DNA from: Thermobispora bispora DSM 43833
Lineage (GTDB): Bacteria; Actinomycetota; Actinomycetes; Streptosporangiales; Streptosporangiaceae
Assembly (NCBI RefSeq): GCF_000092645.1
Contig: NC_014165.1
Coordinates: 1,674,001-1,738,000 of the forward strand
Direction of reading: 5' to 3'
Length of the DNA stretch: 64,000 nt
Below are positions 56,563-61,913 of this stretch, piece by piece. The position numbers and the translations under genes are program-made. The first letter of the stretch is position 1, and every line of letters begins with the position of its first letter. Under the pieces are notes generated by a model. The model made no database searches. It was not told the DNA's origin and saw nothing but the letters and a program-made list of their open reading frames with translations.

Positions 56563-59500
56563 GGATCATCCCCCCGCGCACGGGGAGCACTTCCTCGACG
56601 AAGCGCGTGATCTTATAGCCACGGGATCATCCCCGCGTGCGCGGGGAGCACTCGCCGAACCGGGATGCGGCACGAATCTCGAGGGGATCATCCCCGCGTG
56701 CGCGGGGAGCACGTATGAATCGCTCCAATCGCCTACGAGCTCACGGGATCATCCCCGCGTGCGCGGGGAGCACGTCCTCGCCCCGCAGCATGATCGTCAG
56801 AGCCAGGGATCATCCCCGCGTGCGCGGGGAGCACCCTGGCGAAACGGTGCCGGGTACGACGTCGTGGGGATCATCCCCGCGTGCGCGGGGAGCACCCGCC
56901 GCCGATTGCTAACCCCAATGGGCCCTCGGGATCATCCCCGCGTGCGCGGGGAGCACCACACCCGCCCCGGTGACACCGTGCTCGACCCGGGATCATCCCC
57001 GCGTGCGCGGGGAGCACACAGGGTGGCCCCGGGGAGGGCGTACAGGCCGGGGATCATCCCCGCGTGCGCGGGGAGCACCTAGTCCTCTCCGGAATTACTC
57101 AGGATCATCCCCGCGTGCGCGGGGAGCACCGGAATCGGGCCTCTGAGCGCCACGCAGAGGCGGGATCATCCCCGCGTGCGCGGGGAGCACACGGTGGTGC
57201 TGCCCTCCCTTGTGCGGTAGAAGGGATCATCCCCGCGTGCGCGGGGAGCACACAGGGTGGCCCCGGGGAGGGCGTACAGGCCGGGGATCATCCCCGCGTG
57301 CGCGGGGAGCACGACGTCGACCTGGACCTGCGGGAGATCCAAGTGGATCATCCCCGCGTGCGCGGGGAGCACGACAAGCGCGAGTCCTCTCATCTGATCC
57401 CCCGGGGATCATCCCCGCGTGCGCGGGGAGCACACCGGCGTGCCCGTTAAGGGTGGGGGTGCCCGGGGATCATCCCCGCGTGCGCGGGGAGCACCCGCGC
57501 GCCGTCTTCGGTTTGTCCTGGCCGGCGGGATCATCCCCGCGTGCGCGGGGAGCACACGTTGACGGGTGCGAGCAGCGTGGACTTGGCGGGATCATCCCCG
57601 CGTGCGCGGGGAGCACACGTTGACGGGTGCGAGCAGCGTGGACTTGGCGGGATCATCCCCGCGTGCGCGGGGAGCACGGAATCCGCCACTTCGTCGAACC
57701 CTGCGGTCCGGGATCATCCCCGCGTGCGCGGGGAGCACGCGAGGACCTTGGGCTGCTTCCACACGCCGTCGGGATCATCCCCGCGTGCGCGGGGAGCACC
57801 TCGACGACGCCCCGGCCGGCACCCCCCAGCGGGGATCATCCCCGCGTGCGCGGGGAGCACGGGTCGTCTGGATCTGCGAGGGCGAAAAGGATGGGATCAT
57901 CCCCGCGTGCGCGGGGAGCACACTCGGTAAACCCCGGAGTCTCTAAGAAGACTGGGATCATCCCCGCGTGCGCGGGGAGCACCTGCCTCGATCGCCCGCA
58001 TCCAGGGAGTCTGAGGGATCATCCCCGCGTGCGCGGGGAGCACCGGTCCGGCCAAGTGGTGTCCGTGACCGCGGAGGGATCATCCCCGCGTGCGCGGGGA
58101 GCACCCGGTGCGCTGGCGTTCACCGGCTCGTAGATGGGGATCATCCCCGCGTGCGCGGGGAGCACGTGCTCGCCCGCCTCGCCGAGACCACCACCCGGGG
58201 ATCATCCCCGCGTGCGCGGGGAGCACCAGGCGATCGCCGAGTTCCGTGCGGGGTACCAGGGATCATCCCCGCGTGCGCGGGGAGCACTGCGGCTCGGGGT
58301 CGTTGATCAGTTTGTATCCGGGATCATCCCCGCGTGCGCGGGGAGCACGCGAGGACCTTGGGCTGCTTCCACACGCCGTCGGGATCATCCCCGCGTGCGC
58401 GGGGAGCACTCGACGAGGATGGCGTTTTGCGCCGCCACCGCGGGATCATCCCCGCGTGCGCGGGGAGCACCCCGCATGCGCGGGGAGCAGGTAATTGCGT
58501 TGGGGATCATCCCCGCGTGCGCGGGGAGCACTCCGCCTGGAGCACCGGGACGGGGATGACGCGGGGATCATCCCCGCGTGCGCGGGGAGCACACCCCGGT
58601 CGAACCGGTCAAACCGGTGATCGAGGGATCATCCCCGCGTGCGCGGGGAGCACTTTGTGCGGGGCCTGCGGGGGGGCGGGCAAAAGGGATCATCCCCGCG
58701 TGCGCGGGGAGCACCGGGGCTTGGGCCGGCCGCAGGGTGACCGGGCGGGATCATCCCCGCGTGCGCGGGGAGCACACACTACGACAAAAGACCGACACCT
58801 GTCACGGGGGATCATCCCCGCGTGCGCGGGGAGCACGTGTCCCGGCTAGCGCCATCTCCTGCCGTCCAGGGATCATCCCCGCGTGCGCGGGGAGCACTTC
58901 GGGTCTCGGTTAAGCGGCTTGGGTGCCAAGGGGATCATCCCCGCGTGCGCGGGGAGCACGTTCCAGCACTTCGCGATCAGTCTCAGCTCCGGGGATCATC
59001 CCCGCGTGCGCGGGGAGCACCGCTACTTCGACCTCAAGCCCGCCCACCGTCAGGGATCATCCCCGCGTGCGCGGGGAGCACATCACTTGCCAATGGCACA
59101 TGCAGTTTGGTGCGGGATCATCCCCGCGTGCGCGGGGAGCACACAGCCCACCCCTCACTCTCGTGGGCCCGGCCGGGATCATCCCCGCGTGCGCGGGGAG
59201 CACCACCCGGCCTCGTTCTGGTACGTCAAGGCGCCGGGATCATCCCCGCGTGCGCGGGGAGCACTGCGCGCCTGCCGGGAACGTCGGGTGCGTAACGGGA
59301 TCATCCCCGCGTGCGCGGGGAGCACCTCCCTCGACGACGAGCGCTCGCCAGCCGGAAGGGATCATCCCCGCGTGCGCGGGGAGCACAGGTAGGGGGTGAG
59401 CCGCAGCCTGGGTTTGACGGGATCATCCCCGCGTGCGCGGGGAGCACGATACGCCCGTAGCCGGTGGCAGATCACCACCGGGATCATCCCCGCGTGCGCG

Positions 59501-61406
59501 GGGAGCACAGGTGCCGTAGCTGGTGGTGACGATCATTCCGGGGATCATCCCCGCGTGCGCGGGGAGCACACCACCTGCAACGTGGCGTGCCGCAAGGCGG
59601 CGGGATCATCCCCGCGTGCGCGGGGAGCACCGCTCCTGGCGGATCTGCTCGGCGAGCTCGTGGGGATCATCCCCGCGTGCGCGGGGAGCACAGTTCAGCT
59701 CCGGACTGAACGCTCTGGCGTGGGTGGATCATCCCCGCGTGCGCGGGGAGCACAGTTCAGCTCCGGACTGAACGCTCTGGCGTGGGTGGATCATCCCCGC
59801 GTGCGCGGGGAGCACTGGAGACCGGCAAGAGCGGGGGAACCGTCGAGGGGATCATCCCCGCGTGCGCGGGGAGCACCTCGGCCCGGACCCGGCGAAGCTC
59901 GGCCTGCCGGGATCATCCCCGCGTGCGCGGGGAGCACAGGTGCTGGGCGCGGGTCATGGCGATGGCCCCGGGATCATCCCCGCGTGCGCGGGGAGCACGA
60001 CTGGGAGATGGACGATGCCGAGTTCGAGCGGGGATCATCCCCGCGTGCGCGGGGAGCACTCGTGCGGTGGATGGTGCGGACGGACATGCCGGGGATCATC
60101 CCCGCGTGCGCGGGGAGCACACCGGCGAGCGCTCGAGCGCTCATGAGCGGTCGGGATCATCCCCGCGTGCGCGGGGAGCACCACTTCACCCAATCCTGGT
60201 AGGCAGCCACCGGGGGATCATCCCCGCGTGCGCGGGGAGCACCCCCCGGCAGCCGGCCGGGTCGACGCCGAGACGGGATCATCCCCGCGTGCGCGGGGAG
60301 CACCTTTGCGCCCTCACTCCGCACAGCCGCGCCGAGGGATCATCCCCGCGTGCGCGGGGAGCACTTCGATTCCCTCGACCAGGGCCAGCAGCTCCCGGGA
60401 TCATCCCCGCGTGCGCGGGGAGCACACGTCCACCGGGGAGGTGGACATCCAAGGGCGGGGATCATCCCCGCGTGCGCGGGGAGCACCCAGCTGCTGAACC
60501 GTCATATCCCTCCTCCCTGGGATCATCCCCGCGTGCGCGGGGAGCACGACCGCTGCCACTCCTCCCACTTGTCCTGGAGGGGATCATCCCCGCGTGCGCG
60601 GGGAGCACGCCCGGGCTCACGGCAGCAAACCCGCGCCGGCGGGATCATCCCCGCGTGCGCGGGGAGCACCGCGCTCCAAGAAGCAGGAGGCCGTGTACCG
60701 GGGGATCATCCCCGCGTGCGCGGGGAGCACAGGAACAGGTCGCCCGGCTGGGTGCCCGTGGGGGGATCATCCCCGCGTGCGCGGGGAGCACCCCGCTCTG
60801 AGCTGGGCAAAGACGGCGAGAAGGGGATCATCCCCGCGTGCGCGGGGAGCACGTCGACGGCACCGAGGAGGCGGCGGGCCTCGTTGGGATCATCCCCGCG
60901 TGCGCGGGGAGCACGTCGTATCGGGGGAGCCCATGAGGCGCTCCCCGGGATCATCCCCGCGTGCGCGGGGAGCACACGATCGTCCGCAAGGACGACCCCG
61001 AGTTCGAGGGATCATCCCCGCGTGCGCGGGGAGCACCTCCCGGGGCTGACTTGCCATCGTGAGCCATCGGGATCATCCCCGCGTGCGCGGGGAGCACCCG
61101 CACTGCCGCAGCGAACACGTACCGACACTGGGATCATCCCCGCGTGCGCGGGGAGCACATGACGGTGGCGCGTCTGCCCCGCCAGCTGAAGGGGATCATC
61201 CCCGCGTGCGCGGGGAGCACAGCTTGGCCGCCTGCCTCGCGGCCTTCATCAGGTTGGGATCATCCCCGCGTGCGCGGGGAGCACCGGGAACCGCTGGAGT
61301 TCACCGACCTGTCGATGGGATCATCCCCGCGTGCGCGGGGAGCACGCCGGATGCCGGACAACGTCGTAGCAATCGACGGGATCATCCCCGCGTGCGCGGG
61401 GAGCAC
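56563..61406 (-). CRISPR. Type I-E CRISPR array, 80 repeats and 79 spacers
   Basis: Repeats of 28 bp begin GGATCATCCCC, have centre GCGTGCGC and end GGGGAGCAC on the plus strand, spaced 61 bp apart. On the minus strand they start GTGCTCCCCGCG and end GGATGATCC, the usual actinobacterial I-E form with a hairpin. The cas2-cas1 genes and leader lie to the right, so the newest spacer is at 61346-61378 and the oldest at 56591-56623. The oldest repeat (56563-56590) is degenerate in the centre (CCCCCCGCGCACGGGG). Most spacers are 33 bp when counted with the repeat's 29th base; exceptions are 57079 (23), 57313 (32), 58898, 59692, 59754, 60853, 61159 (34) and 61221 (36). Four spacers occur twice. Confidence 0.98.
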
Positions 61407-61562: not shown

Positions 61563-61913
61563 TTAGCGTCGGCCGTATCGGTGCCGGCGCGCGGCTTTGC
61601 TCCAGCCGCTCGGGGGAGGGGTTGCGGAGACGGCGGGCTGTTCTTTCGGGCGCCGGATCAGAATGAGACCGTCGTGATCGACGGGCTGCCATTTATGATC
61701 ATGAGTCTTGAAGGTGAATCCTTGCTCATTGTCCGTGGTATAGGCGAGAAGAGCCCGCCCCGTGTTCGCATACCTGCACACTTCTCGCCATAGTGCTTCC
61801 CGGATCCGGGCCGACGGCCCGCCGATGAAGACACCGGGGGAAATCTCGATCAGCCAGCGAGTCACGAAGCCTCGCAGCCCGGCCGGACAGCGGGTCAGGA
61901 TCAAGACCGTCAC
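61563..61913 (-). CDS. cas2: CRISPR-associated endoribonuclease Cas2e
   Basis: 116 residues of the type I-E Cas2 group: TVLILTRCPAGLRGFVTRWL, EISPGVFIGGPSARIREALW, LAYTTDNEQGFTFKTHDHKW. It forms the Cas1-Cas2 integrase core. GTG 61913 overlaps the cas1 stop (GTGA). Slightly longer C-terminus than usual, Arg-rich. Confidence 0.95.
   Translation of the reverse strand: MTVLILTRCPAGLRGFVTRWLIEISPGVFIGGPSARIREALWREVCRYANTGRALLAYTTDNEQGFTFKTHDHKWQPVDHDGLILIRRPKEQPAVSATPPPSGWSKAARRHRYGRR

What the first reader, a model, noticed from the sequence alone, without database searches (positions are those of the whole stretch)
58471..58503. A spacer that contains CRISPR repeat sequence
The 33-bp spacer begins CCCGCATGCGCGGGGAGCAG on the plus strand, a near copy (two differences) of 20 bases of the array's own repeat, followed by 13 unrelated bases. 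In crRNA orientation it reads unrelated DNA followed by CTGCTCCCCGCGCATGCGGG, like the spacer/repeat border of another actinobacterial I-E array. It may have been taken from a CRISPR array on a foreign replicon, so the system would target competing CRISPR loci or risk targeting itself.
Basis: partly seen in the sequence, partly recalled or inferred. Interest (0 to 1): 0.75.

Follow-up and report, generated by a model that had tools for sequence, protein, structure and literature searches.

The report
CRISPR spacer copied from CRISPR DNA
One entry in this heat-loving compost bacterium's CRISPR memory is itself a piece of a foreign CRISPR repeat, so the defence seems to have recorded a rival CRISPR locus or a viral decoy of one, and the guide RNA made from it may be cut short by the cell's own machinery.

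Summary
Confirmed. The 33-nt spacer at 58471-58503 of a type I-E array (genome length matches Thermobispora bispora) holds 20 nt matching its own repeat at 18/20. It is the clear outlier among 220 distinct spacers, expected about 0.001 times by chance. Length and period are normal, and neither substitution occurs in any repeat of the three arrays, so it is a genuine spacer, not a decayed repeat.

The repeat half is letter-for-letter the first 20 nt of real foreign I-E repeats, for example on conjugative plasmid pSP01 and in arrays of family relatives. It is also exact in a solitary viral unit resembling RNA anti-CRISPRs. The whole protospacer was not found, so the source is unknown: a foreign array border is most likely (0.6), a repeat mimic second (0.27).

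Self-targeting is unlikely, because the unique 13 nt are the seed. New here: with the next repeat's first G the spacer forms a complete Cas6e-type hairpin, predicting a 12-nt guide or a misfolded precursor (folding only). Nine other in-register hairpin spacers were found; two look repeat-derived.

The parts
58471..58503 (-). the 33-nt spacer (crRNA sense on the minus strand), 48th of 79 from the leader end
   Evidence: sequence read directly
58471..58490 (-). repeat-like 20 nt, crRNA sense CTGCTCCCCGCGCATGCGGG; PAM-distal end of the guide
   Evidence: 18/20 to own repeat; 20/20 to foreign I-E repeats
58491..58503 (-). unique 13 nt CCAACGCAATTAC at the guide's 5' (seed) end
   Evidence: no match of this border in genome contigs or viral contigs
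58470..58485 (-). complete six-pair stem hairpin CCCCGCGCATGCGGGG formed by the spacer plus the first G of the following repeat
   Evidence: sequence; folding; cleavage by Cas6e is inferred
58504..58531 (-). perfect repeat preceding the spacer in the transcript
58443..58470 (-). perfect repeat following the spacer in the transcript
56563..61406 (-). type I-E CRISPR array, 80 repeats (79 perfect, the leader-distal one with 3 mismatches), 79 spacers; leader on the high-coordinate side
61563..61913 (-). cas2e
   Evidence: NCBIfam TIGR01873
61910..62893 (-). cas1e
   Evidence: NCBIfam TIGR03638
62890..63585 (-). cas6e (cse3/casE); cas5e, cas7e, cse2, cse1 and cas3 follow, mostly beyond the window end
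   Evidence: NCBIfam TIGR01907 and others

Best explanation
A genuine type I-E spacer captured by Cas1e-Cas2e from foreign DNA that carried an I-E CRISPR array with a repeat beginning CTGCTCCCCGCGCATGCGGG. The protospacer straddled a spacer/repeat border: the last 12-13 nt of a foreign spacer plus the first 20 nt of the foreign repeat, most likely on a plasmid or another transferred segment. SHOWN: the sequence, its register, its outlier status, that such foreign repeats exist including on a conjugative plasmid, and a complete cas operon beside the array. INFERRED: the source, and that it was incoming DNA. Consequence, inferred and supported by folding only: the guide's seed lies in the 13 unique nt, so it can address only that one foreign border and not the own repeats; and because spacer plus next repeat's first G form a complete Cas6e-type hairpin, the precursor can be cut there, giving a crRNA with about a 12-nt guide and a normal 3' hairpin, or can misfold with the next repeat. 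The spacer is therefore probably a weak or dead memory rather than an efficient weapon.
For: 18/20 to own repeat, about 0.001 expected by chance; normal length and 61-nt period. The 20 nt are exact in 20 repeats of the fetched pSP01 stretch, 7 of pNBC_00162_1 and 1 of the Streptomyces sp. Alt3 plasmid, and in 12 of 30 fetched family loci, 10 of which are arrays or array remnants. Phage repeat clusters keep the repeat's first five bases in only 5 of 36 units, so an intact 5' end leans to an array. Complete I-E operon. Hairpin forms with probability 0.98 at 37 C and 0.90 at 60 C before the next repeat is made.
Against: The whole protospacer was found nowhere (partial BLAST matches only). The exact repeat half also exists as a solitary viral unit (L010). 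The best flank match (10 of 13, Streptomyces clavifer plasmid L012) lies in an irregular two-unit element, but that locus was picked by BLAST and may be chance. No array spacer tried (27 of 75 distinct in this array) matched a phage record, so the host's mobile elements are hardly sampled. Repeat masking by folding is not special: 26 of 232 units mask more at 37 C, 22 at 60 C. Cas6e cleavage inside the spacer is not measured.
Confidence: 0.6

Rival explanations
1. The protospacer was a phage- or plasmid-borne solitary or degenerate repeat (an RNA anti-CRISPR, Racr, or its like): the host remembered the gene of a CRISPR decoy. The 13 unique nt would be the decoy's upstream flank.
For: CTGCTCCCCGCGCATGCGGGG is exact in two viral contigs, one a solitary unit before a terminator-like hairpin (L010). 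Of 11 viral contigs with CTGCTCCCCGCGCNNGCGGGG, nine are solitary, paired or irregular units and two regular arrays. Streptomyces phages Ignacio and ZL12 carry six and three degenerate units between genes. The 13 nt are less G+C-rich (46%) than the first 13 nt of spacers on average (70%; 6.8% are as low), which would suit a promoter side but proves nothing.
Against: Only 5 of 36 units in 10 hand-picked viral clusters keep [CG]TGCT before the stem; here the 5' end is intact. No viral contig holds the border.
Confidence: 0.27
2. A degenerate own repeat left by rearrangement: a unit collapsed so that 20 nt of a repeat became part of a spacer.
For: The array does show duplications and one short 23-nt spacer, so it recombines.
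Against: Register is exact (33 nt, 61-nt period). None of the repeats in the three own arrays (83, 101 and 53 copies in the fetched loci, three of them in two loci) has C at position 1 or T at position 15. More than one event would be needed.
Confidence: 0.05
3. A chance resemblance: an ordinary G+C-rich hairpin such as a terminator captured as a spacer.
For: Hairpins do enter spacers: among the nine other in-register cases at least three (Streptomyces griseosporeus, Salmonella diarizonae, Rhodovulum adriaticum) look like terminators or unrelated palindromes.
Against: Here identity runs through CTGCT upstream of the stem, 20/20 to real repeats; 2 of 400,000 null spacers reach 18/20.
Confidence: 0.04
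4. Self-acquisition from a variant repeat of an own, now lost, array.
For: The genome holds an orphan array remnant at 105594-105621, so arrays have been lost here.
Against: That remnant and all present repeats lack both substitutions.
Confidence: 0.04

Closest known systems
Ordinary type I-E spacers against plasmids or phages
   Same: 33-nt unit in register in an array with a complete I-E operon.
   Different: Most of its length is I-E repeat sequence, so it carries a complete repeat-type stem (with the next repeat's first G).
RNA anti-CRISPRs / solitary repeat units (PMC10651486)
   Same: DNA that mimics the host repeat; a viral solitary unit (L010) has the identical 21 nt.
   Different: Here the sequence is a spacer inside a host array, not an independent viral gene; whether it was taken from one is open.
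Virus-borne mini-CRISPR arrays and stand-alone repeats (PMC6858448, passages seen)
   Same: CRISPR repeats on viruses and plasmids that could serve as protospacers.
   Different: Archaeal viruses; the passages I saw describe virus spacers against other viruses, not host spacers against repeats.
In-register hairpin spacers of Kitasatospora griseola (L140) and a Dehalococcoidia (L147)
   Same: Normal-length spacer containing part of an I-E repeat: about 19 nt of the 5' half (L140), or hairpin plus 6 of 7 nt of the 3' tail (L147).
   Different: L140 is in the opposite orientation and in a degenerate array; L147 covers the other half of the repeat. Their sources were not found either.

Membership tests
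type I-E CRISPR array spacer | lies between two intact repeats at the normal period and length | tested here: met
   33 nt, 61-nt period, both flanking repeats perfect
type I-E CRISPR array spacer | associated with a type I-E cas operon | tested here: met
   eight cas genes, each with its best NCBIfam model of the I-E type or Cas3 (the full-length Cas3 model is below its cut-off, the Cas3 core and HD domain models are above)
type I-E CRISPR array spacer | has a protospacer with a PAM in foreign DNA | tested here: inconclusive
   no protospacer found
spacer derived from a foreign I-E repeat | repeat part identical to a real foreign repeat | tested here: met
   20/20 in plasmid arrays and in 12 of 30 fetched family loci
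spacer derived from a foreign I-E repeat | complete protospacer found at a spacer/repeat border | tested here: inconclusive
   not found in the collections searched
RNA anti-CRISPR target (Racr-derived spacer) | complete protospacer found in a solitary or degenerate repeat unit with promoter and terminator | tested here: inconclusive
   repeat half found in L010, flank different
Cas6e substrate inside the spacer | forms the repeat-type stem-loop | tested here: met
   0.98 at 37 C and 0.90 at 60 C in the nascent RNA; outcompeted by a longer hairpin when the next repeat is present
Cas6e substrate inside the spacer | is cleaved by Cas6e | not testable with these tools
   needs RNA data

The most novel reading that the evidence does not exclude
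The array has recorded the gene of an RNA anti-CRISPR: the host turned a virus's decoy copy of a repeat into a target, yet the memory brings the decoy's Cas6e hairpin with it and so shortens its own guide. Repeat mimicry would then be partly shielded from CRISPR memory, an 'un-rememberable gene' effect that can be tested.
Probability: 0.2. Interest if true: 0.75.

Novelty: new variant of a known kind. Interest (0 to 1): 0.42.

Why it matters
It raises a question that my paper searches did not turn up: can CRISPR immunity remember a CRISPR repeat, on a rival plasmid or in a viral decoy, without spoiling the guide RNA it makes? A spacer holding the repeat hairpin should be cut or misfolded in the host's own crRNA pathway. 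That predicts that such spacers are rare, biased in orientation or phase, and that repeat mimics are hard targets. These predictions can be tested by array surveys and in laboratory E. coli K-12.

Tried and rejected
Conserved flank shared by plasmid and phage units (GGCATCGC...CTGCTCCCC), suggested by the S. clavifer plasmid and phage ZL12: 14 viral contigs matched and, as printed, none had the repeat hairpin; dropped. Relaxed source searches CGCAANTACCTGCTCCCCG (1 contig) and ACGCAATTACNTGCTCC (14 contigs): none was followed by the hairpin. Best flank match among 970 repeat borders in fetched loci: 10 of 13 in L012, next 8; L012 had been selected by BLAST with this spacer, so no weight is put on it.

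Idea that this spacer uniquely masks the next repeat by folding: rejected; 26 of 232 units are lower at 37 C and 22 at 60 C.

Idea that the neighbouring spacer (58532-58564) is also repeat-derived: it is not among the 12 best of 232 in the window test.

Idea that in-spacer repeats are common: the triple-hairpin pattern matched 58 stretches of genome contigs; 10 lie in arrays by spacing, one of them a short-spacer duplication, leaving nine in register, two with clear repeat identity beyond the stem. The pattern needs an intact stem, so partial cases are missed. Sources of other hairpin spacers in phage records: four tried, three without a match and one (Tessaracoccus) matching only its repeat-like part in Streptomyces phages; a piece of L147's spacer had 0 viral matches.

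PAM: not determined; 27 of the 75 distinct spacers in this array were compared with phage records and none matched.

Full report
WHAT WAS CHECKED. The window is bases 1,674,001-1,738,000 of a 4,189,976-bp single-contig genome. That length equals the published genome of Thermobispora bispora R51T, a compost organism growing at 50-65 C (PMC3035289, passages seen); the identification rests on this match. The array spans 56563-61406, its repeat on the crRNA strand reading GTGCTCCCCGCGCACGCGGGGATGATCC; 79 of 80 repeats are perfect and the leader-distal one has 3 mismatches. Eight cas genes of a type I-E operon (cas3, cse1, cse2, cas7e, cas5e, cas6e, cas1e, cas2e) lie between this array and a second one. 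A third array lies near 2.74 Mb and an array remnant at 105594-105621.

THE SPACER. At 58471-58503 the crRNA-sense spacer is CCAACGCAATTAC followed by CTGCTCCCCGCGCATGCGGG. The latter differs from the own repeat's first 20 nt only at position 1 (G to C) and position 15 (C to T). Of 232 listed spacers (220 distinct) it is the clear outlier: 17/18 against the own repeat, next 14, then 13. In a Markov null 2 of 400,000 random spacers reach 18/20 on either strand, so about 0.001 are expected among 220. Its length is modal (200 of 220). A decayed own repeat is unlikely: exact register would have to be restored, and none of the own repeats carries either substitution.

WHERE THE REPEAT HALF OCCURS. 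The whole protospacer was not found: CAACGCAATTACNTGCTCCCC had 0 matches in genome contigs and 0 in viral contigs; the 32-mer with up to 3 mismatches was found in 1 of 341 family genomes, the window's own, at this spacer. The repeat half alone is well known to nature. In the fetched stretches it is exact 20 times on pSP01, a plasmid of Streptomyces sp. PAMC 26508 typed as conjugative with the array beside cas3, 7 times on pNBC_00162_1 and once on the Streptomyces sp. Alt3 plasmid. BLAST with spacer and borders, at the lax limit E 10, touched 93 plasmid records, 77 Streptomyces, and 23 phage records, 18 Streptomyces. The 20-mer TGCTCCCCGCGCATGCGGGG (which leaves out the repeat's first base) occurs in 55 of 341 family genomes, the own included. 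Of the 30 loci fetched there, 27 are arrays, array ends or two- to three-unit remnants at the 61-nt period, one (L177) is the pair also seen in viral contig L009, and two (L174, L188) are irregular or solitary. Twelve of the 30 hold the full 20/20. In the eight stretches fetched from the relatives G318-G321 the loop is the same but the first base is G or A, not C.

VIRAL REPEATS. CTGCTCCCCGCGCATGCGGGG is exact in two viral contigs. In L010 it is a solitary unit downstream of a TACAGT region and before a terminator-like hairpin. Of 11 viral contigs with CTGCTCCCCGCGCNNGCGGGG, two (L216, L217) look like regular arrays with the 61-62-nt period; nine are solitary, paired or irregular units. The pair-hairpin pattern gave 38 viral contigs, among them clusters of 2-5 degenerate units; phage Ignacio has six units and ZL12 three, in stretches without annotated genes. 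They resemble RNA anti-CRISPRs (PMC10651486: abstract, three sections and passages seen). By its own method text, the finder of that work discards clustered repeats and solitary ones with partial repeats within 100 bp, so multi-unit clusters of this kind would be left out. Promoter and terminator calls here are by eye. Only 5 of 36 units in 10 hand-picked clusters keep [CG]TGCT before the stem; the spacer's intact 5' end therefore leans towards an array source.

DOES IT TARGET ITSELF? In type I-E the seed is the guide's 5' end (general knowledge), here the unique 13 nt. In the fetched own-array loci 103 sites match at 22/33 or more, one being the spacer; of the other 102 (a few counted twice) the best has 26/33, and the best seed match is 6 of 8. 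Priming by poor matches is not excluded, and the PAM is not determined.

WHAT THE HAIRPIN DOES TO THE GUIDE. The spacer's CCCCGCGCATGCGGG is completed to a six-pair stem by the next repeat's first G. Before the next repeat is transcribed it forms with probability 0.98 at 37 C and 0.90 at 60 C. With the next repeat present the best fold is one long hairpin joining spacer and repeat (-34.6 kcal/mol at 37 C; the two bare separate stems evaluate to -25.4), and the canonical repeat stem falls to 0.006 (37 C) or 0.09 (60 C). This masking is not special: 26 and 22 of 232 units are lower. Inferred from the known habit of Cas6e to cut at the 3' base of the stem (general knowledge): a product of 8-nt handle, 12-nt guide and 21-nt hairpin, about 41 nt instead of 61. 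A passage in PMC7296934 says that I-E Cascade with spacers shortened by 6 or 12 keeps Cas3-mediated degradation at a markedly reduced rate; here the loss would be 20. So the memory is probably weak. None of this is measured.

RECURRENCE. A three-hairpin pattern over genome contigs gave 58 stretches. Ten lie in arrays by spacing; one is a short-spacer duplication (L129); nine have a hairpin inside a normal-length unit. Clear repeat identity beyond the stem is seen in two: Kitasatospora griseola (L140, about 19 nt of a CTGCT-type repeat, opposite orientation, degenerate array) and a Dehalococcoidia (L147, 6 of 7 nt of the repeat's 3' tail, same orientation). The other seven look like terminators or are ambiguous. 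Family genome G209 (L048) adds a further in-register case; it and Tessaracoccus (L131) carry the same GCAT-loop hairpin as our spacer but do not match their own repeats beyond it. Searches for sources gave nothing beyond repeat-like parts.

VERDICT. The point most worth a test is that a spacer taken from a repeat brings a Cas6-type site into its own guide. My paper searches (one library, open licences only) listed nothing on host spacers against repeats or Racr genes; listings and passages were seen, not whole texts.

Noticed in passing
L013 (phage Ignacio), L014 (phage ZL12), L059, L061, L071, L073, L076, L077, L081, L089, L092, L094, L212, L213, L215: Phage and viral contigs carry clusters of 2-6 degenerate I-E-like repeats at irregular or short spacing in apparently intergenic DNA, some followed by terminator-like hairpins: candidate multi-unit RNA anti-CRISPRs of a kind that a solitary-repeat search would discard.
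   Followed up: partly
L048 (family genome G209) and L131 (Tessaracoccus caeni): Arrays whose in-register spacers hold the foreign hairpin CCCCGCGCATGCGGGG, with the same GCAT loop as the finding's spacer but unlike their own repeats.
   Followed up: partly
L039 and L129 (family genome G089; Nocardiopsis alborubida): Near the start of an array, two tandem units with a repeated very short spacer (about 10 nt, CACACACACA).
   Followed up: no
genome 105594-105621 (L035), outside the window: Orphan repeat with one mismatch, followed by sequence like the other arrays' trailer: an array remnant far from the three arrays.
   Followed up: partly
window 56563-61406: Duplicated spacers within the array (four spacers occur twice, two of them in tandem) and one short 23-nt spacer, signs of recombination within the array.
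   Followed up: no
L012 (Streptomyces clavifer plasmid) and L014 (phage ZL12): Both have an irregular repeat pair with a similar short spacer of about 20 nt containing GGCATCGC, the plasmid copy next to cas3.
   Followed up: partly
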